The notes under the pieces: model-generated
What the model was told of the DNA's origin: nothing
What the model saw: only the letters and a program-made list of their open reading frames with translations
Databases searched by the model: none
Position numbers and translations under genes: made by a program
Assembly: GCA_017305715.1 (NCBI GenBank)
Contig: JAFKKG010000013.1
Location: 310,001-374,000, forward strand
Reading direction: 5' to 3'
DNA from: Hyphomicrobiales bacterium
Lineage (GTDB): Bacteria; Pseudomonadota; Alphaproteobacteria; Rhizobiales; Xanthobacteraceae
Length of the DNA stretch: 64,000 bases
Shown: positions 52,544 to 60,805 of the stretch, one piece after another
Position numbering within the stretch: the first letter of the stretch is position 1
Layout of the letters: the number at the start of each line of letters is the position of its first letter

Positions 52544-53815
52544 ATGCCGGAAATGACTGCCAGACCGCAATTGCCGGAGCGAACCCCGCGCGCCAAGGGC
52601 GAGCCGACTGCCCTTGATGGTCTGCTGGTCGTCGATTTTACCCGTGTCGTCGCGGGGCCCGCCTGTACGCAGACGCTGGCCGACTTCGGCGCCGAGGTGA
52701 TCAAGATCGAAAATCCGGACGGCGGCGACGATAGTCGGCACTATGAGCACGCGGAAATCGGTGGTGAGAGCGCCGCCTTTATCAGCCTTAATCGCAACAA
52801 GCGCGGCATTGCGCTCGATTTCACCAATCCGGCCGCGCTGGAGGTGGCGCGCGAACTGATCGCCAAGGCCGACGTCGTGGTGGAGAATTTCTCCGGCGGC
52901 GTGATGAAGAAATACGGGCTCGACTACGCCTCGGTCTCCCCAACCAATCCGCGGCTGGTATATTGCTCGATCTCGGCCTATGGCCGCAAGGGAGACTTCG
53001 CGCTGCGCCCGGGCTTCGATCCGATCACGCAGGCGGAAAGCGGCTTCATGTCGCTGAACGGTTTTCCGGACGGCGAGCCGGTGCGGACCGGTCCGCCGAT
53101 CGTCGATCTGGCGACGGGAATGTCTGCCTGTAACGCGATCCTGCTGGCGCTACTTGCCCGCGAGCGGCTCGGCCGTGGCCAGAATGTCGAGGTGGCGTTG
53201 ATCGACACGGCGGTGGCGATGACGGCCTTTTACGGCATGGCCTACCTGATCAGCGGCGAGAACCCCGGCCGCTTTGGAAACTCCCCGAACGGTTCACCGA
53301 CGGTCGGGGTGTATCAGGCCTCCGACGGGCCGCTTTATATGGCATGCGCCAACGACCGGCTGTATCGCCGGCTTGTGACGGATGTGCTGGGACGGCCCGA
53401 CCTCGTCACTGACCCGCAGTTCGCTCACCGGAAGAACCGATCGATCAACAAGGAAAAGCTGCGCGCCATCATCGCCGGCATTTTTGCCGGCGACCGGCTC
53501 GAGAACTGGATGGCGAAGATGAAGAAGGCCAACATCCCCGTTGGCTATCTGCGCACGGTCGAAGAGGGCCTCAACGCGCCGGAGGTGCGCGATCGCGATC
53601 GCCTGAGCCGCATCCCGCATCCGACGGCGGGCTCGGTGCCCAATATCGAAACGCCGCTCGTTATGAGCCTCACGCCCACCATCGATCCGGTCGCCGCGCC
53701 GCTGCTCGGCGAGCATACCAAGGAAGTGCTGCGCAAGACGCTTGGTTATGACGACCGCCGTATAGCGGCCCTGGCCGAGGCAGGGGCTTTTGGAAAGACG
53801 GGCAATACCGGCTGA
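52544..53815 (+). CDS. Family III CoA-transferase (CaiB/BaiF type)
   Basis: 423 residues: GLLVVDFTRVVAGPACTQTLADFGAEVIKIENPDGGDD, RNKRGIALDFTNP and VVENFSGGVMKKYGLDY. It is the only one of the four family III genes here that keeps Asp at the catalytic position (Asp221 in ALIDTAVAM). ATG 52544 follows GTGAGGA; MTARP at 52553 is an alternative. It is alone in orientation, with terminator hairpins on both sides; substrate unknown. Confidence 0.92.
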   Translation: MPEMTARPQLPERTPRAKGEPTALDGLLVVDFTRVVAGPACTQTLADFGAEVIKIENPDGGDDSRHYEHAEIGGESAAFISLNRNKRGIALDFTNPAALEVARELIAKADVVVENFSGGVMKKYGLDYASVSPTNPRLVYCSISAYGRKGDFALRPGFDPITQAESGFMSLNGFPDGEPVRTGPPIVDLATGMSACNAILLALLARERLGRGQNVEVALIDTAVAMTAFYGMAYLISGENPGRFGNSPNGSPTVGVYQASDGPLYMACANDRLYRRLVTDVLGRPDLVTDPQFAHRKNRSINKEKLRAIIAGIFAGDRLENWMAKMKKANIPVGYLRTVEEGLNAPEVRDRDRLSRIPHPTAGSVPNIETPLVMSLTPTIDPVAAPLLGEHTKEVLRKTLGYDDRRIAALAEAGAFGKTGNTG

Positions 53816-53973: not shown

Positions 53974-54159
53974 TCAGTTCGGCTTGCTGCGCAGGTTGTT
54001 TCCCGGAATAGTTTCAACCTTCTTGGGTTCGGCCCGGTCGATCTCCAGGCGAGCCATTCGAAGTATCAAGGTCGCCGTCGTCAAGCCGAGCCGTTCGGCT
54101 TCTTGCGCAGCGGTATCGACTTTCTGGGCCAAGCCCTCACGTTTACCTTGATGTGCCAT
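53974..54159 (-). CDS. Small hypothetical protein, last gene of the YqcI-type operon
   Basis: 61 residues: MAHQGKREGLAQKVDTAAQEAERLGLTTATLILRMARLEIDR. A ribosome-binding stretch AAGAGGAACAGCA precedes the ATG. The protein looks like one or two amphipathic helices with a basic tail (GNNLRSKPN). It starts 24 bases after the cupin stop. No family was recognised. Confidence 0.55.
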   Translation of the reverse strand: MAHQGKREGLAQKVDTAAQEAERLGLTTATLILRMARLEIDRAEPKKVETIPGNNLRSKPN

Positions 54160-54183
54160 TGCTGTTCCTCTTCTGGGGTTGCT

Positions 54184-54504
54184 TCAATTGTTCGCCGGGT
54201 TGGCAGGTGGGCGCGTCGCGATCGCATAGACCGCGCCACCCTCCAGCGCCTCGGATTGGTGGGGCGTTCCGGCGGGCAGCAATATGGTGTCGCCAGCGCC
54301 GACGATGCGCTCGCCGCCGTCCCACATAAAATTCAACCGGCCACGGATGATCACGAGAATCTCGTCCACTGGATGGGTGTGAAGGTGATGCACCTTGCCC
54401 GCGGTGTCGTGCTGCAGTTCGATGCTGCCCTGTTCAGGCAACAGGTTCAGGATGACGGGATCGATGGCGAACTCGGTCTTGTGGCCTGCAATGATCTGGG
54501 TCAT
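54184..54504 (-). CDS. Single-domain cupin protein
   Basis: 106 residues: VHHLHTHPVDEILVIIRGRLNFMWDGG gives the first cupin motif with metal ligands HxH...E, and GDTILLPAGTPHQSEAL gives the second with the last His. Cupins bind Fe, Mn or Zn and include dioxygenases, isomerases and binding proteins. The start overlaps the YqcI-type stop by four bases, so both proteins are made together and may act on one product. Confidence 0.88.
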   Translation of the reverse strand: MTQIIAGHKTEFAIDPVILNLLPEQGSIELQHDTAGKVHHLHTHPVDEILVIIRGRLNFMWDGGERIVGAGDTILLPAGTPHQSEALEGGAVYAIATRPPANPANN

Positions 54505-55256
54505 GCCGCTTGCTCCTTGCCTTCGATCTGAGGCGGTTTGTTCTGCGCGAGTTTGGCGAAGGGGCAGCCCCCTCCGGATTCATTGTCGTCATGCAGAAAA
54601 TATTGCCGGTATTCGCGCCCGTCGGCCGCGCCGTAGCGACCGAGATGCGGTGAGGGGCCCGCACTGTCGTACGGAATGAGCCGCTTACGCACTTCAGCGA
54701 ATGCGGCGTTGGCTGCCCTTTCGGTTCCGAGGATCTTGTCGAAGACCCATCGCGGTTGGAAGGTGAGCATGAAGGCGCTGGACCGGCGGCTTTGCCGCAT
54801 CACATGTGCCGGCGTCGTGCAAACCACGAAAATCGGCTCGCCCGCGAACGAGAATTCCCACATTGGATGATCGATCTGTTCGGGGATCTCCGCGGGCCAT
54901 GGGCTGTTATCGAGCCGCGCCAGCTGGTCGAGCGTTAGCCACATCTTGCGGTAATACGCATCCAGCGTCTGCACCGGGCGAGGCCGGGTAAATACAATAA
55001 GCGAAGTGTTGGGACCGTAGGATCGGGACTCGGAGACATATTGGGCCAGCTGGCCGGCGAGCACCTCGACGTCGTAGGGATCGAGGAACAGATAGCGCAG
55101 TTGGTCCTGGCGATGGCCGGCCACGCCGAAAACACAGGGAAAGGGTCTCGCTTCGCTACTCATCTGGGATTCGAATTCGGAGAACATCACGCTCTGCCAA
55201 CTGCTCACCGCATATTTCGAAGCGACTTCCTCTCGTCTCAAAAACAAACGCTCCAT
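54501..55256 (-). CDS. YqcI/YcgG family protein, heme-dependent N-hydroxylase-like
   Basis: 251 residues. The family blocks are PFPCVFGVAGHRQDQLRYLF near the start, LIVFTRP in the first third, HPMWEFSFAGEPIFVVCTTPAHVMRQSRRSSAF mid-protein and FQPRWVFDKILG. The C-terminal ADGREYRQYFLHDDNESGG and CPF end complete it. The family includes GntA, a heme-dependent enzyme that N-hydroxylates a guanidino group, so a related N-oxygenation is plausible here; the substrate is unknown. It is co-transcribed with MFS, GNAT and cupin genes, as in a small-molecule cluster. Confidence 0.78.
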   Translation of the reverse strand: MERLFLRREEVASKYAVSSWQSVMFSEFESQMSSEARPFPCVFGVAGHRQDQLRYLFLDPYDVEVLAGQLAQYVSESRSYGPNTSLIVFTRPRPVQTLDAYYRKMWLTLDQLARLDNSPWPAEIPEQIDHPMWEFSFAGEPIFVVCTTPAHVMRQSRRSSAFMLTFQPRWVFDKILGTERAANAAFAEVRKRLIPYDSAGPSPHLGRYGAADGREYRQYFLHDDNESGGGCPFAKLAQNKPPQIEGKEQAA

Positions 55257-55281
55257 AACGCTCCCTCTACTTTCACGACGT

Positions 55282-56574
55282 CTAGCGGCCTATCAATTTG
55301 TTCCTCATCAATAACGGCCCGGCTATACCGGGCAGCGACATGAGCAGCAGAATTCCGATCAGGGTGGTGTAGCCCGCGTCACCGATGGCGGGGGCGCCTT
55401 GCACCGCGTCCGCTCCAGCAAGCTGGCTGGCTGCAACCATCGCAAACCCGATCACGGGCTGTGCGGCGCCAGCGAAAATTCCCGCAGCCGTCGTGTTCAC
55501 GGATGCGCCAACGCCGATCAGGTCGGCGGTGTAGAGCTTCTTGGTGGACTTCAGCACCAGTGGAACGGTCCCGCCGGCGACAAGCCCGAGCGCCGTAAAG
55601 ACGATGGTGACGTAGACCAGGCCGAACGCATGGGCGATCGCCGGCAGCAACATCGTAATCAGGATCATTCGCAGCACGCAAATGCGGATCAGCGCGTTGT
55701 CGAGCGCCGCCGCGGCACGGTCAGCGGCGTGACCGAGAAAGATCGAGCCGACCGCATTGCCGATCATGAAGGCGAGCAGGGGCGTGCCTGCGGCGGTCGG
55801 CGAGATATTGAAGAAATGCGCCACCATCGGAATGCCCCAGACGCCCGACAACGTGGTCACCACGGCGAAATGGGACGCAAACGTCATGGCGCAGCCCCAG
55901 TTGGCGAGCCCGGTCAGTGATTGCCGGGCGGCCATCACGACGCTTTTCAGCGTCTTGTTGCTGTGCGACACCGGATCGGGTTTCAGCACGACCTTGGCGA
56001 CGGCAAGATTGGCGAGGCCAACGGCGGCGATGAACAGGAAGCAAGCGCGCCAGCCAAAGCCGGTTACAGCCGCCGCGAGCGGTGTCGTGGCGATGACGCC
56101 ACCGACATATCCCGACACTTGGGAAATGCCCGACATCACGCCGAATCGCTCGTCGCTGAAGCTCTGCGCCACCAGCTTCAGCAACGCCGTGAATACCAGC
56201 GCATCACCGCAAGCAATAACCAGGCGCGCGGCAAACGCGTCGAGCATATTCGGCGCCAGCGCGAACGCAGCGCTCCCCAGCGAGGAGGCCGCCATGCTGA
56301 ACAGCACCACGCGCTTGACGCCATAGCGGTCGACCAGCAGGCCTGCCGGGATCTGCATCAGGGTGTAGCCCCAGAAATAGCTGGAGGCGAGCATCGCGAT
56401 GCCGGCGGCGTCGGTGCTGAAATCGTGCATGAAGTTCAGGCTGACCGTTTGCGGCGACACGCGCTGCAGGAACGCGATGGCGTATGCGATCGCCACCGCC
56501 GCCCAGGCCAGATAGGCACGATCCGTGAATCGCGAGAGCGGTGTGAGTACGGCTTGCTGTCCGGGCATCGACAT
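55282..56574 (-). CDS. MFS transporter
   Basis: 430 residues with twelve helices. LQRVSPQTVSLNFMHDF and LVDRYGVKRVVLFSMAASS (MFS loop 2-3 motif G-x-x-x-D-R-x-G-x-K-R) mark the first half, and LGHAADRAA the second. The ATG shares a base with the GNAT-like stop (TGATG), so translation is coupled. Its role may be uptake of a precursor or export of the product of the operon. Longer in-frame readings to 56877 lie inside the GNAT-like gene. Confidence 0.88.
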   Translation of the reverse strand: MSMPGQQAVLTPLSRFTDRAYLAWAAVAIAYAIAFLQRVSPQTVSLNFMHDFSTDAAGIAMLASSYFWGYTLMQIPAGLLVDRYGVKRVVLFSMAASSLGSAAFALAPNMLDAFAARLVIACGDALVFTALLKLVAQSFSDERFGVMSGISQVSGYVGGVIATTPLAAAVTGFGWRACFLFIAAVGLANLAVAKVVLKPDPVSHSNKTLKSVVMAARQSLTGLANWGCAMTFASHFAVVTTLSGVWGIPMVAHFFNISPTAAGTPLLAFMIGNAVGSIFLGHAADRAAAALDNALIRICVLRMILITMLLPAIAHAFGLVYVTIVFTALGLVAGGTVPLVLKSTKKLYTADLIGVGASVNTTAAGIFAGAAQPVIGFAMVAASQLAGADAVQGAPAIGDAGYTTLIGILLLMSLPGIAGPLLMRNKLIGR

Positions 56575-57284
56575 CACACCCTCGCGTATCCGACCGAGAA
56601 CAGGGCATCGGCGGTATCGGGAATCATACGGGACATCGCGGCGTCGACCAGCGACGCAGCGCCATGATAGTCCTGCCGGTGGTGCTTGATGTGGCCGTAG
56701 GCGCCCCGCATGATCATGCCGGGTAGCTCCAGCGGTTTGCCGGGGTACAGCGCGGCGCACATCTCGATGCAAGCCGCTTGCAGCGCGGAATCCTGCACGT
56801 CCTCCAGCAACGAGGGGGTTACCTTCTCGCAGATCTTGGCATTGGCCGTCCAGACGATCGGGTTTCGCGTCCGCCATCCATAGAGCACGCTGTCACCCAT
56901 CTCGGCAGCGCCTGAACATTTCAGCACTTCCGAGGTGAAGAAGCCGTAGAGACCGCGGCCCTGATGAGCGGGGAGCACTTCGGTGCCGCTGCGATAGATC
57001 GCAAGCTCGCCGGAAATCCGCAGCACGCGATAGACTGAAAATGCGGCCAGTCCGGAGCTGTCATACACCAGGACGAGGCCGTACTTGCCGTCAAACGGAG
57101 AGGCCTGCGCCGTCCAATGCGGCTCGGTCGCTTTCCAGTTGACGGCAATGATGCCGTTCATGGCGTCCATCAGCGGCTGCTGGTCGGAGGCCGCGATGCG
57201 CGATGCGTCCGGAAAGCTGTAAATCGCGTAATCGGTCCAGGGCGATTTGATCGCCTGATACTGGCTGCCCAGATTTTGCGGCAT
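56574..57284 (-). CDS. GNAT-like N-acetyltransferase
   Basis: 236 residues. The part QGRGLYGFFTSEVL has the Q/R-x-x-G-x-G/A acetyl-CoA loop pattern, preceded by LAAFSVYRVL and the ELAIYRSGTEVLPAH strand. The rest has little similarity to any subclass I know. ATG 57284 was chosen for the GGAG 7 bases upstream. First gene of the five-gene minus-strand operon and divergent from a GlxA-like regulator 63 bases away. Confidence 0.65.
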   Translation of the reverse strand: MPQNLGSQYQAIKSPWTDYAIYSFPDASRIAASDQQPLMDAMNGIIAVNWKATEPHWTAQASPFDGKYGLVLVYDSSGLAAFSVYRVLRISGELAIYRSGTEVLPAHQGRGLYGFFTSEVLKCSGAAEMGDSVLYGWRTRNPIVWTANAKICEKVTPSLLEDVQDSALQAACIEMCAALYPGKPLELPGMIMRGAYGHIKHHRQDYHGAASLVDAAMSRMIPDTADALFSVGYARV

Positions 57285-57347
57285 GGCCGAACTCCAGTTA
57301 CGCAACCCGAGCTATACAGGCGGGCCTCGAATGCCTTAAAGGACAAT

Positions 57348-58367
57348 ATGCCCTCGAAATCTGCCAAAGCCCGCCGTCCCGGACCGCGCGAAGCGGCGTC
57401 GATGCGGCGCATCGCTATCGTCGGCTTTCCCGGCGTGACCCTGCTCGATATCTCCGGACCGGCGCAGGTGTTTGCGGAGTTGGCGGCGATCGAACTGCCG
57501 GGTCCCGGCTATGCGCTATCGTATCTCTCGACCTCGGGCGGGCTGGTGCCGACCGACGTCGGGATGATGATCGATACCGCTGCGATCGATAGCGTGCGGC
57601 CGCATCAGGTCGATACGCTGGTAATCCCGGGCGGCCCCGGCATTTGGGATATCCGCAAGGACGCGCGCCTGATGCAGTGGATTTCGGAGGCGCTGCCCAA
57701 GGCGCGCCGGGTGGCCTCGGTGTGTCTTGGGGCTTTCGCGCTGGCCTGGACCGGCATACTGGACGGCAAGCGCGCCGTGACCCATTGGCGTTTTTGCCCG
57801 AGACTGCAGGACAGCTTCCCCAACATCCGTGTCGAGCCGAATGCCATCTTCGTCCAGGACGGCCGGGTCTGGTCATCGGCCGGCGTCAGCGCCGGTATTG
57901 ATCTGGCGCTTGCCATGATCGAGGAGGATTTCGGGCATACGACTGCGCTCGACGTCGCGCGGAGACTGGTGGTCTATCTGAAGCGGCCAGGCGGCCAGAG
58001 TCAATTTTCCACCGTACTCGCGGCGCAGGCCTCCGACGTCGAAGGGCGATTCAGCGCGCTGCACGCCTGGATCATCGAAAACATCGCAAGCGATCTCAGG
58101 GTCGAGACGCTCGCGGCGCAGGCCGGGATGACGCCGCGGACGTTCGCTCGCACCTACACCAGTCGCACCGGCATGACGCCGGCGAGCGGCGTCGAGGCGC
58201 TGCGGGTCGAGACAGCGCGGCTGCTGCTCGAAAGCCGGCAGGTCGGTGGTGTCATCGAGGTCGCCAAACGCGCCGGCTTCGGCGATGACGAACGCATGCG
58301 GCGCGCGTTCCTGCGACATCTCGGCGTATCGCCCAGCGAATACCGCAGCCGCTTTTCGGGCGGCTGA
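57348..58367 (+). CDS. GlxA-like transcriptional regulator (DJ-1/PfpI domain + AraC HTH)
   Basis: 339 residues. The DJ-1-like domain (RIAIVGFPGVTLLDISGPAQVF ... LVIPGGPGIWDI ... VASVCLGAFALAW with the elbow Cys) spans about 20-200. The AraC double HTH follows (VETLAAQAGMTPRTFARTY and VIEVAKRAGFGDDERMRRAF). It starts 63 bases from the divergent operon with YqcI, MFS and cupin genes, its probable target. A basic N-terminal leader (MPSKSAKARRPGPRE) precedes the fold. Confidence 0.9.
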   Translation: MPSKSAKARRPGPREAASMRRIAIVGFPGVTLLDISGPAQVFAELAAIELPGPGYALSYLSTSGGLVPTDVGMMIDTAAIDSVRPHQVDTLVIPGGPGIWDIRKDARLMQWISEALPKARRVASVCLGAFALAWTGILDGKRAVTHWRFCPRLQDSFPNIRVEPNAIFVQDGRVWSSAGVSAGIDLALAMIEEDFGHTTALDVARRLVVYLKRPGGQSQFSTVLAAQASDVEGRFSALHAWIIENIASDLRVETLAAQAGMTPRTFARTYTSRTGMTPASGVEALRVETARLLLESRQVGGVIEVAKRAGFGDDERMRRAFLRHLGVSPSEYRSRFSGG

Positions 58368-58518
58368 GCGGCGCGGGCTGGGAGTTTTCCGCTCCAGGCC
58401 GACGTACCTCGCCAGCGAATAGCAGCCCTTCGTTTGTGCACCGGATCAACCTGTTCAAGGCGGTAGCTTTTCTCGTTTATCTGCGGCTAATGTGCCGCGA
58501 AAATGGGAGAGAAGCACG

Positions 58519-59652
58519 ATGAATGACGGGACCCCTATCCGGCCGGCGCGGAATGTCGAACTCGGCGCCAGCGGCGAAGAATTCCAGAATCTCCACGAAT
58601 TCGTGCGCAAGGCCCGGGCCCGGCTGAACCAGAACGCGTGGGATTACATCGTCGGGGCGTCGGAGACCGAGACCACCATGCGCCGCAATCGTATGGCGCT
58701 CGACGAGCTCGCATTCCGGCCGCGGGTGCTGCGCGATGTCGCCAAGGTCGATGCGTCGACCACGGTCTTCGGCCGCAAATTGCGCCTGCCGGTCATGATC
58801 GCACCTGTCGGTGCGCTGGAAATTTTCGATCCCGATTCAGGTGCTGCGGTGGCGCGCGGAGCCGGCCGGTTTGGCGCTGCCCATATGCTCAGTTCGGTCT
58901 CGGAGCCCGGGCTCGAGGCCACGGCAAAAGCCGCACCCGATGCGCTCCGCATCTTCCAGCTCTATGTCCGCGGCGACGATGCTTTTGTCGAAGACATGGT
59001 CAGCCGCACGATCGCGAACGGGTATGCCGCGTTCTGTCTGACCGTCGACACGGCGCATTACAGCCGTCGCGAACGCGATATCGCCAAGCGCTATGTCCGG
59101 GAAAGCCGGATCCGCGCCACCGGAGGCGACTTCCAGAAGGGCTTGGAATGGCGGACCGTGAAGCTGATCAAGGACAAGTATAAAATCCCGCTGGTGCTCA
59201 AGGGTATCGCGACCGCCGAAGATGCCGCCATTGCGCTCGATCACGGCGTGGATTGGATCTATGTGTCGAACCACGGCGGACGCCAGCTCGACCACGGCCG
59301 CGGCTCGATGCATGTGCTGCCCGAAATCGTCGACGCCGTTGCCGGCCGCGCCAAGATCATGGTCGACGGTTCGTTCTGCCGTGGCACCGACATCGTGAAG
59401 GCGATCGCCTCGGGCGCCGATCTCGTCGGCATCGGCCGCCTGCAATGCTGGGCGCTCGCCGCCGGCGGCGAAGCCGGCATCACCCGGATGCTGGAACTGC
59501 TGGAGGATGAGATGATCCGTTGCCTCGGATTGCTCGGTGTCACCAGTCTCGCCGAGCTGAACAAATCCTGCCTGCATGCTGCGACGCCGACCAACCTGCC
59601 GAGCGTATTCAGCGCGTTTCCGCTGCTGGATATTGAACCCTATCGGTACTGA
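58519..59652 (+). CDS. FMN-dependent alpha-hydroxy acid dehydrogenase
   Basis: 377 residues: VMIAPVGALEIFDPDSG, LYVRGDDAFVEDMVSRTI, TVDTAHYSRRERDIAKRYV, VLKGIATAEDAAIALDHGVDWI and the catalytic His252 in SNHGGRQLDHGR. The lactate/glycolate oxidase family oxidises L-2-hydroxy acids with FMN. ATG 58519 was chosen by GGGAGAGAAG upstream; an earlier in-frame start adds 9 residues. It is 151 bases after the GlxA-like gene on the same strand and may belong to the same regulon. Confidence 0.92.
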   Translation: MNDGTPIRPARNVELGASGEEFQNLHEFVRKARARLNQNAWDYIVGASETETTMRRNRMALDELAFRPRVLRDVAKVDASTTVFGRKLRLPVMIAPVGALEIFDPDSGAAVARGAGRFGAAHMLSSVSEPGLEATAKAAPDALRIFQLYVRGDDAFVEDMVSRTIANGYAAFCLTVDTAHYSRRERDIAKRYVRESRIRATGGDFQKGLEWRTVKLIKDKYKIPLVLKGIATAEDAAIALDHGVDWIYVSNHGGRQLDHGRGSMHVLPEIVDAVAGRAKIMVDGSFCRGTDIVKAIASGADLVGIGRLQCWALAAGGEAGITRMLELLEDEMIRCLGLLGVTSLAELNKSCLHAATPTNLPSVFSAFPLLDIEPYRY

Positions 59653-60451: not shown

Positions 60452-60805
60452 ATGATTGAACCGAAACTTGAAGTTCCGGCCGAGCTGCGCGATCTGGCCG
60501 AAAAGACCATTGATCAGGCGGAAAAGGCGTTCGGCATGTTCTTCGATGCCGCCGGCAAGTCGATGACGTCGATGCCGGGGCCGGGCACCGAAATCTCGCG
60601 GCAGGCGCTGTCGTTTACCGAGCAGAACATGAAGGCTGCGTTCGAGCACGCCCGCAAGCTGGTTCACGCGACCGACCTCCAGGAAGCGATGCGAATTCAG
60701 TCGGAATTCCTGCGCAGCCAGTTCACCAATGCCGGCGAGCATATGCGGCAGATCAGCGGTGGTGTGATGTCGGCTGCCAAGGACGCGACCAAGGGCAAGT
60801 TCTGA
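60452..60805 (+). CDS. Phasin-family protein
   Basis: 117 residues: LRDLAEKTIDQAEKAFGMFFDAAGKSM, SFTEQNMKAAFEHARKLVHATDLQEAMRIQSEFLRSQF, and a short GGVMSAAKDATKGKF end. This alpha-helical pattern is the phasin family, which coats polyhydroxyalkanoate granules or acts as a helical chaperone. GGAGAGGG lies before the ATG. It stands alone with its own promoter. Confidence 0.9.
   Translation: MIEPKLEVPAELRDLAEKTIDQAEKAFGMFFDAAGKSMTSMPGPGTEISRQALSFTEQNMKAAFEHARKLVHATDLQEAMRIQSEFLRSQFTNAGEHMRQISGGVMSAAKDATKGKF

What the first reader, a model, noticed from the sequence alone, without database searches (positions are those of the whole stretch)
53974..57347. Compact operon around a heme-type N-hydroxylase relative with GNAT, MFS and cupin genes
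Five minus-strand genes sit within 3.3 kb (GNAT-like, MFS, YqcI/YcgG family, cupin, 61-residue protein) with overlaps or gaps of at most 25 bases. They are divergent from a GlxA-like regulator. Family knowledge: YqcI/YcgG includes GntA, a heme-dependent N-hydroxylase of a guanidino group. The combination (N-oxygenation + N-acylation + transporter + metal cupin) is not one I recognise as a described pathway. It could make or degrade an N-hydroxylated small molecule. An FMN 2-hydroxyacid dehydrogenase at 58519 may belong. Inference: the enzyme's substrate is an amine or guanidine.
Basis: partly seen in the sequence, partly recalled or inferred. Interest (0 to 1): 0.78.

Follow-up and report, generated by a model that had tools for sequence, protein, structure and literature searches.

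The report
Heme N-hydroxylase paired with a cupin
A small gene cluster in Bradyrhizobium encodes a heme enzyme that probably adds oxygen to a nitrogen atom of an amino acid such as arginine, coupled to a metal enzyme (cupin) and a transporter, which suggests a minimal bacterial route to an unusual nitrogen-oxygen or nitrogen-nitrogen compound that has not yet been tested in the laboratory.

Summary
The five minus-strand genes and the divergent GlxA/AraC-type regulator exist as described. The YqcI/YcgG protein is a clear relative of AglA, a heme-thiolate guanidine N-hydroxylase (PDB match E 3.8e-31), and keeps its heme cysteine and substrate-gate residues. The new point is the cupin. In 68 of 68 loci found by the YqcI sequence alone (three phyla: Pseudomonadota, Bacillota, Acidobacteriota) a relative of this cupin follows YqcI or is fused to it; a Rhodoferax plasmid also has the fusion. 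More distant YqcI genes lack it (0 of 16 loci; 0 of 6 inspected plasmid loci). All 68 loci also have a transporter, of changing type (MFS, amino-acid permease, LysE). GNAT and this MFS are confined to Bradyrhizobium and Gluconacetobacter. The FMN dehydrogenase is a genus-wide neighbour, not a member. The cupin has the metal ligands and a tyrosine (His+11) that SznF uses in N-N bond formation; eight other host cupins lack that tyrosine, but specific kinship to SznF is not shown. Most likely: a minimal N-hydroxylase/cupin pathway on arginine or a similar amino acid, its product exported. Pairing is strongly supported; substrate, export and N-N chemistry are inferred. New variant of a known kind (graminine GrbE/GrbD logic without NRPS or SznF-like protein).

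The parts
54501..55256 (-). YqcI/YcgG-family protein, predicted heme-thiolate N-hydroxylase (251 aa; Cys41 = AglA heme ligand Cys44)
   Evidence: PF08892 E 5.4e-65; AglA in PDB E 3.8e-31; residues compared
54184..54504 (-). stand-alone cupin (106 aa), predicted metal ligands His42, His44, Glu48, His82 and Tyr93; start overlaps the YqcI stop (ATGA)
   Evidence: Cupin_2 E 3.2e-11; behind or fused to YqcI in 68 of 68 loci; ligand and Tyr counts
55282..56577 (-). MFS transporter (430-431 aa; ATG at 56574 or GTG at 56577)
   Evidence: MFS_1 E 1.8e-31; conserved in 46 of 68 loci, replaced elsewhere by APC, LysE or another MFS
56574..57284 (-). GNAT-fold N-acyltransferase without Pfam/NCBIfam match (236 aa; HQGRGLYG acetyl-CoA motif at 107-114)
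   Evidence: model m3583514b7c5d pTM 0.84, PDB hits NatD 4u9v E 2.4e-6 and other GNATs; alignment
57348..58367 (+). divergent GlxA/FtrA-like AraC regulator (DJ-1/PfpI + HTH_18), probable start 57348
   Evidence: a relative in 47 of 68 loci
53974..54159 (-). 61-aa protein of unknown function, operon-associated in Bradyrhizobium
   Evidence: full-length match in 7 of 36 same-genus genomes, exactly those with the operon; two weak partial matches, one of them a broken copy in G006 at the same site

Best explanation
The operon encodes a minimal small-molecule pathway whose core is a two-enzyme unit. A YqcI/YcgG heme-thiolate oxygenase N-hydroxylates the guanidino (or amino) group of a free amino acid, most likely L-arginine or a close relative, with electrons from a housekeeping ferredoxin/reductase. 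The partner cupin then takes the labile N-hydroxy product directly and rearranges it, most likely by SznF-like metal chemistry that can form an N-N bond. In Bradyrhizobium and Gluconacetobacter a GNAT acylates substrate or product, the MFS protein exports it, and the GlxA/AraC-type regulator controls the operon. Shown: family membership, conserved catalytic residues, YqcI-cupin adjacency or fusion in 68 of 68 loci, a transporter in 68 of 68. Inferred: substrate, electron donor, export direction, roles of GNAT and regulator, the cupin reaction, and the N-N bond, which is the least sure step (about 0.35 alone).
For: YqcI: PF08892, AglA match, and invariance in 17 of 17 aligned members of the counterparts of AglA Cys44 (heme), Phe152, Arg166, Gln177, Arg179, Phe182, Arg200 and Gln228 (roles from PMC12866846). 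AglA Lys225, a phosphonate contact, is Glu in 17 of 17; the AglA mutant K225E hydroxylates free arginine, and the Tistrella GrbE homologue (arginine route to graminine) also has Glu there. Pairing: cupin behind or fused to YqcI in 68 of 68 loci; one fused ORF in 6 Bacillus/Sutcliffiella loci and 1 acidobacterium and in a Rhodoferax plasmid; the fusion model fits AglA plus a cupin. Controls: no such cupin at 16 of 16 other PF08892 loci, nor at 6 of 6 inspected plasmid loci under 40% identity, against 5 of 5 inspected at 45% or more. Cupin: ligand set plus Tyr at His+11 (57 of 68) or +10 (9 of 68); 0 of 8 other host cupins found with this profile have Tyr at His+11; SznF has Tyr459 at His448+11. 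Transporter in 68 of 68; LysE or YjeH-like proteins (exporter families, recalled) in 20 of 23 non-Bradyrhizobium loci.
Against: No biochemistry was found for this subfamily. The cupin is not specifically close to SznF by sequence: SznF ranks 44th in the PDB profile search (E 0.003) behind generic cupins and at ranks 20-47 by fold; in a small direct test the window's own cupin scored poorly against SznF and MobE. It carries a Glu ligand, a spacing also seen in the zinc hydrazine-forming cupins PyrN/RHS1, which need a MetRS-like partner that is not among the genes scanned here. AglA Lys196 is Phe in the window (Phe, Leu, Gln or Arg in the family); in AglA K196M and K196H send hydroxylation to the terminal nitrogen while K225E favours the internal one, so regiochemistry is open. 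No reductase lies among the genes scanned. The Roseovarius locus (L096) has lost two of the cupin His ligands, so the metal chemistry may not be essential everywhere. The window MFS scores best with a D-galactonate transporter model, then with multidrug and other models, all far below cut-off, so it could import.
Confidence: 0.6

Rival explanations
1. The pair destroys rather than builds: YqcI N-hydroxylates arginine or a toxic guanidine (for example legume canavanine), and the cupin, as a lyase, hydrolase-like enzyme or dioxygenase, breaks the hydroxyguanidine; the MFS imports the substrate and the regulator senses it.
For: The MFS scores best with a D-galactonate transporter model, though far below its cut-off; GlxA/GbdR-type regulators often govern catabolism of amines (recalled family knowledge); D-cycloserine biosynthesis uses a YqcI enzyme and a hydroxyarginase (passage and reference title in PMC8976061).
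Against: LysE and YjeH-like families (export types, recalled) replace the MFS in 20 of 23 other loci; an ATP-grasp amino-acid ligase in L082 and a weaker, sub-threshold one in L103 look biosynthetic; the marine, Bacillus and acidobacterial distribution does not fit a legume toxin; no deaminase, urease or arginase among the genes scanned.
Confidence: 0.22
2. The cupin is not an enzyme of the same pathway but a sensor or a metal/heme-protecting subunit of YqcI (a structural partner).
For: Fusions and strict adjacency also fit a subunit; Roseovarius L096 keeps the domain after losing two His ligands.
Against: Full ligand set and Tyr read in 66 of 68 loci (1 lost, 1 not resolved by the pattern); AglA and ChmN hydroxylate in vitro without such a cupin.
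Confidence: 0.1
3. Ordinary single-step resistance or salvage module: only YqcI matters, and the neighbours are chance or lineage baggage.
For: GNAT, the window MFS and the 61-aa gene are limited to one branch; other YqcI genes occur with LysE and no such cupin.
Against: 68 of 68 cupin adjacency and fusions in three lineages are not chance.
Confidence: 0.08

Closest known systems
AglA / AlpD (argolaphos; YqcI/YcgG heme N-hydroxylase, PDB 9ub3 and mutants)
   Same: Same Pfam family and predicted fold; heme Cys, gate Phe/Arg/Phe and Gln residues conserved.
   Different: AglA acts on aminomethylphosphonate-linked arginine; its phosphonate contacts Lys196 and Lys225 are Phe and Glu here; no phosphonate gene among the 8 window proteins scanned, and no cupin among AlpA-AlpI, the part of the Alp table seen in a passage.
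GrbE + GrbD (gramibactin), MobF-GrbE + MobE (tistrellabactin), ChmN + ChmM (chalkophomycin)
   Same: A YqcI N-hydroxylase paired with a protein that carries a cupin domain; graminine with its N-N bond comes from arginine. ChmN hydroxylates free arginine (passages of PMC10849742, PMC6771848, PMC10391617, PMC11705231).
   Different: There the cupin is the C-terminal domain of an SznF-like protein and the product enters an NRPS. Here the cupin stands alone or is fused to YqcI, no NRPS is among the window genes scanned, and the host gave no MobE match (without positive control).
SznF/StzF (streptozotocin)
   Same: Cupin with HxH...H ligands and the His+11 Tyr (Tyr459); rearranges a hydroxylated arginine derivative (review PMC11705231, passages).
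   Different: SznF's own diiron domain does the hydroxylation; no such domain here. Specific sequence kinship is weak.
PyrN / RHS1 / Spb40 hydrazine synthetases
   Same: A small metal cupin, separate or fused, acting on an N-hydroxylated amino acid; PyrN's His50, His52, Glu56, His90 have the same spacing as the window cupin (PMC8664883, passages).
   Different: They need a MetRS-like ligase and a lysine N6-hydroxylase; neither is among the window genes scanned.
Oxygenase-cupin operons with YqcI/YcgG noted in 2010 (PMC2922099, passages)
   Same: Earliest mention that I saw of YqcI in operons with a cupin-bearing protein and, in some, an efflux transporter.
   Different: Those are diiron-oxygenase/cupin proteins with NRPS; the stand-alone or YqcI-fused cupin is not mentioned in the passages read.

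Membership tests
YqcI/YcgG (PF08892) heme-thiolate N-oxygenases | Profile match above Pfam's cut-off | tested here: met
   219.6 bits, cut-off 27
YqcI/YcgG (PF08892) heme-thiolate N-oxygenases | Axial heme cysteine (AglA Cys44, ChmN Cys47) | tested here: met
   Cys41 in PFPC, invariant in 17 of 17 and in all 10 rows; position checked
YqcI/YcgG (PF08892) heme-thiolate N-oxygenases | Heme-carboxylate residues Arg166, Lys196, Arg200 of AglA | tested here: inconclusive
   Arg157 and Arg190 kept; Lys196 is Phe186
YqcI/YcgG (PF08892) heme-thiolate N-oxygenases | Heme binding and guanidine N-hydroxylation | not testable with these tools
   needs protein
GntA (NCBIfam NF041366 equivalog) | Score above the curated cut-off of 145 bits | tested here: not met
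   57.8 bits
SznF-type N-N forming enzymes | Heme-oxygenase-like diiron domain joined to the cupin | tested here: not met
   106-aa cupin only; no MobE match in the host genome (which has no positive control)
SznF-type N-N forming enzymes | Cupin His407, His409, His448 and Tyr459 | tested here: met
   His42, His44, His82, Tyr93; His82 to Tyr93 spacing of 11 as in SznF; resemblance, not proof of kinship
Graminine pair GrbD/GrbE | GrbE homologue beside a GrbD homologue in an NRPS cluster | tested here: not met
   no GrbD-like protein or NRPS among the window genes scanned; no MobE match in the host
Cupin/MetRS hydrazine synthetases | MetRS-like ligase and N-hydroxylase of the lysine type beside the cupin | tested here: not met
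   neither among the neighbouring genes examined
GNAT superfamily | GNAT fold and acetyl-CoA motif Q/R-x-x-G-x-G/A (motif recalled) | tested here: met
   fold matches; QGRGLYG

The most novel reading that the evidence does not exclude
YqcI plus this cupin (in Bacillus a single protein of about 358 aa) is a minimal N-N bond-forming system: two catalytic domains that turn free arginine or a relative into an exported N-nitroso or diazeniumdiolate amino acid, without NRPS, SznF-like protein or ligase. In root-nodule bacteria such a molecule could act as a nitric-oxide donor or metal ligand toward the plant.
Probability: 0.3. Interest if true: 0.88.

Novelty: new variant of a known kind. Interest (0 to 1): 0.63.

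Why it matters
Only six bacterial YqcI/YcgG enzymes are said to be characterised (PMC12866846, introduction), and how their N-hydroxy products become N-N bonded compounds is unproven: the review PMC11705231 says ChmM activity on free hydroxyarginines has not been confirmed (passage). A naturally fused YqcI-cupin protein of about 358 aa is an unusually simple test object for that question. If it makes an N-N or other N-oxygenated amino acid, dozens of Bradyrhizobium genomes, marine Rhodobacteraceae and bacilli would be producers of a metabolite that I did not find described, possibly a nitric-oxide donor in root symbiosis.

Tried and rejected
FMN dehydrogenase (58492-59652) and CoA transferase (52544-53815) as members: rejected. 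Beside the operon they are found only in Bradyrhizobium (39 and 38 of 68 loci); both are missing in the BTAi1 group (L074-L078) and in L083, and the CoA transferase also in L071, which ends there; both are missing in G025 (L015). The dehydrogenase has a match in 35 of 36 same-genus genomes whether or not the operon is there. In G006 the two genes flank a broken 61-aa gene with no match to the operon's other genes or the regulator between them: I read this as a footprint of loss.

The 61-aa gene as mere neighbour: considered, then kept as operon-associated in Bradyrhizobium, because full-length matches occur in exactly the 7 operon-bearing genomes of 36 (two weak partial matches elsewhere).

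GntA identity: rejected by score. NO synthase in the host as an alternative source of hydroxyarginine: none found, with positive controls. Tight kinship of the cupin to SznF: not supported by the PDB profile search. A test in which MobE and SznF cupin stretches were compared with 16 family members, the window's cupin and 8 host cupins put family members at the top, but with modest scores and with host cupins interleaved lower down; the window's own cupin ranked below one host cupin in each case. hhalign gave probability 85%, which generic cupins may also reach (not tested). Second YqcI group in another Bradyrhizobium (G009, L016): about 30% identical, no such cupin, beside a YjeH-like permease and a KamA-like radical SAM protein; not the same unit. 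Promoter scan of the operon: no promoter-like site; 7 terminator-like sites against 3.0 expected, not interpreted. Search for papers on Bradyrhizobium and N-hydroxyarginine: none; on ycgF/ycgG: four, none on this family by their abstracts.
Full report
What is there. The divergent regulator (DJ-1/PfpI plus AraC helix-turn-helix) most likely starts at 57348, about 63 bases from the GNAT start.

YqcI. The protein scores 219.6 bits against PF08892 and finds AglA in the PDB at E 3.8e-31. From passages and two sections of PMC12866846: AglA binds heme through Cys44; Arg166, Lys196 and Arg200 hold the heme carboxylates; Phe152, Arg179 and Phe182 gate the substrate; Gln177 and Gln228 make water-bridged contacts. 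In a 17-member alignment the counterparts Cys41, Phe143, Arg157, Gln167, Arg169, Phe172, Arg190 and Gln218 are invariant; the numbering was checked. Two differ from AglA: Lys196 is Phe186 in the window (Phe 7, Leu 7, Gln 2, Arg 1 of 17), and Lys225 is Glu215 (17 of 17). Both lysines contact AglA's phosphonate. The AglA mutants K196R and K225E hydroxylate free arginine at the internal nitrogen, K196H and K196M at the terminal one. The Tistrella GrbE homologue, from a pathway fed by arginine (PMC10391617, passages), has Arg and Glu at these two places, that is, the state of the AglA double mutant. So a free arginine-like substrate is plausible for the window protein, with regiochemistry open. 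It is not GntA by the curated model.

The core is YqcI plus cupin. A scan of 84,980 species genomes with a YqcI alignment alone gave 68 loci: 45 Bradyrhizobium and 23 others. The two short patterns used select this subfamily, so 68 is a lower bound, and all six rows of the alignment were already known to have the cupin; the cupin itself played no part in the selection. A relative of the window cupin follows YqcI or is joined to it in 68 of 68. In six Bacillus/Sutcliffiella loci and one acidobacterium the two form one open frame, and also in a Rhodoferax antarcticus plasmid. Plasmid records, a separate collection, agree: 48 records matched, 30 were listed and I inspected 11; 5 of 5 with at least 45% identity have the cupin (L148-L151, L156), 0 of 6 with less than 40% (L152-L155, L157, L158; L158 was judged from its annotation only, and L153 has an annotated cupin on the other strand that this profile does not match). 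Among 16 other PF08892 loci in the phylum (15 genomes besides the host, of 299 searched) none has it within the 10.5-11.5 kb taken. A tree of 33 rows puts all 27 cupin-bearing rows on one side of a branch (support 87/91, not strong), with the fused forms toward its base and the separate-gene alphaproteobacterial form as a well-supported group of 22 (99/94); Bradyrhizobium plus Gluconacetobacter is 99/99 (several long branches, midpoint root). This suggests a fused ancestor that split once, but does not prove it.

Changing partners. Each of the 68 loci has a transporter: the window MFS in 46; a YjeH-like amino-acid permease with a divergent Lrp/AsnC regulator in 14; a divergent LysE-family protein, with a nitroreductase downstream, in 6; a weakly scoring MFS with an ATP-grasp ligase in L082; an 845-aa MFS protein with a sub-threshold ATP-grasp part in L103. 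The GNAT occurs in the same 46 as the window MFS. The regulator has a relative in 47. More distant YqcI genes sit with LysE (Priestia, Parageobacillus) or, in Halorussus, beside a urea carboxylase-associated protein, and the Priestia plasmid also carries ornithine carbamoyltransferase and ATP-grasp genes nearby. These contexts point to amino acids of the arginine/ornithine kind, as inference; Natronococcus (L157) and other inspected distant loci show no such hint.

The cupin. It has the HxHxxxE...H ligand set. A pattern count over the 68 loci gave full ligands with a tyrosine 11 residues after the last His in 57, 10 after it in 9, loss of two His in 1 (Roseovarius, L096) and no reading of the second motif in 1. 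SznF has Tyr459 at His448+11; computational work cited in the review PMC11705231 gives it a proton-transfer role in the rearrangement (passages; spacing seen). None of 8 other host cupins found with this profile at E 0.01 or better has that tyrosine. Against a special tie: SznF stands 44th in the PDB list of the profile; the fold search of the fusion lists SznF at ranks 20-47 of the 50 rows shown, among generic cupins; and under tried and rejected. The host has no match to MobE, the Tistrella SznF-like protein (without a positive control), and no NO synthase.

Structures. The Sutcliffiella fusion model (pLDDT 82, pTM 0.63, a low-confidence stretch at 239-251 between the two domains) matches AglA (E 6e-18) and cupins. 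The GNAT-like model (pTM 0.84) matches NatD and other GNATs.

Literature. Searches of the open PMC library for YqcI with YcgG, guanitoxin/GntA/heme (12), AglA/argolaphos (13), DcsA/hydroxyarginine (23), cupin and N-N bond (42), YqcI with cupin (47) and graminine (65) found the graminine and chalkophomycin work and a 2010 note of YqcI in operons with diiron-oxygenase/cupin proteins (PMC2922099). In the passages read I saw no stand-alone or YqcI-fused cupin; papers outside this library, and unread parts, were not checked.

Verdict. The interesting thing is narrower and stronger than stated: an N-hydroxylase/cupin pair found together in every locus of the subfamily examined. I hold the pairing at about 0.9, heme N-oxygenase activity at about 0.85, an arginine-like substrate at about 0.6, export at about 0.6 and N-N bond formation at about 0.35; these are judgements.

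Noticed in passing
L016 8830-18754 (G009, another Bradyrhizobium): Two further, distant YqcI genes about 6 kb apart; the second is followed by a YjeH-like permease and a KamA-like radical SAM protein (near models include lysine and arginine 2,3-aminomutase, all below cut-off), suggesting a second kind of YqcI cluster.
   Followed up: partly
L160 5595-5733 (G006): A broken 61-aa gene remains between the CoA transferase and the FMN dehydrogenase where the operon is missing: probably a footprint of operon loss.
   Followed up: yes
L150 2105-4846 (Acetobacter pasteurianus plasmid pAP1342-3): YqcI in two pieces around an IS1380-family element, with an unannotated cupin of this family behind it.
   Followed up: no
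   Followed up: partly
L096 8717-9073 (Roseovarius sp. 217): Cupin that has lost two of its metal-ligand histidines beside an intact-looking YqcI.
   Followed up: no
L159 2193-14150 (Priestia megaterium plasmid): Distant YqcI with LysE near ornithine carbamoyltransferase, two ATP-grasp genes, two thiamine-pyrophosphate enzyme genes and a PEP mutase-family gene by annotation: may be a phosphonate-type biosynthetic cluster.
   Followed up: no
window 60452-60805 +: ORF that looks like a phasin (storage-granule protein) by eye; not searched.
   Followed up: no
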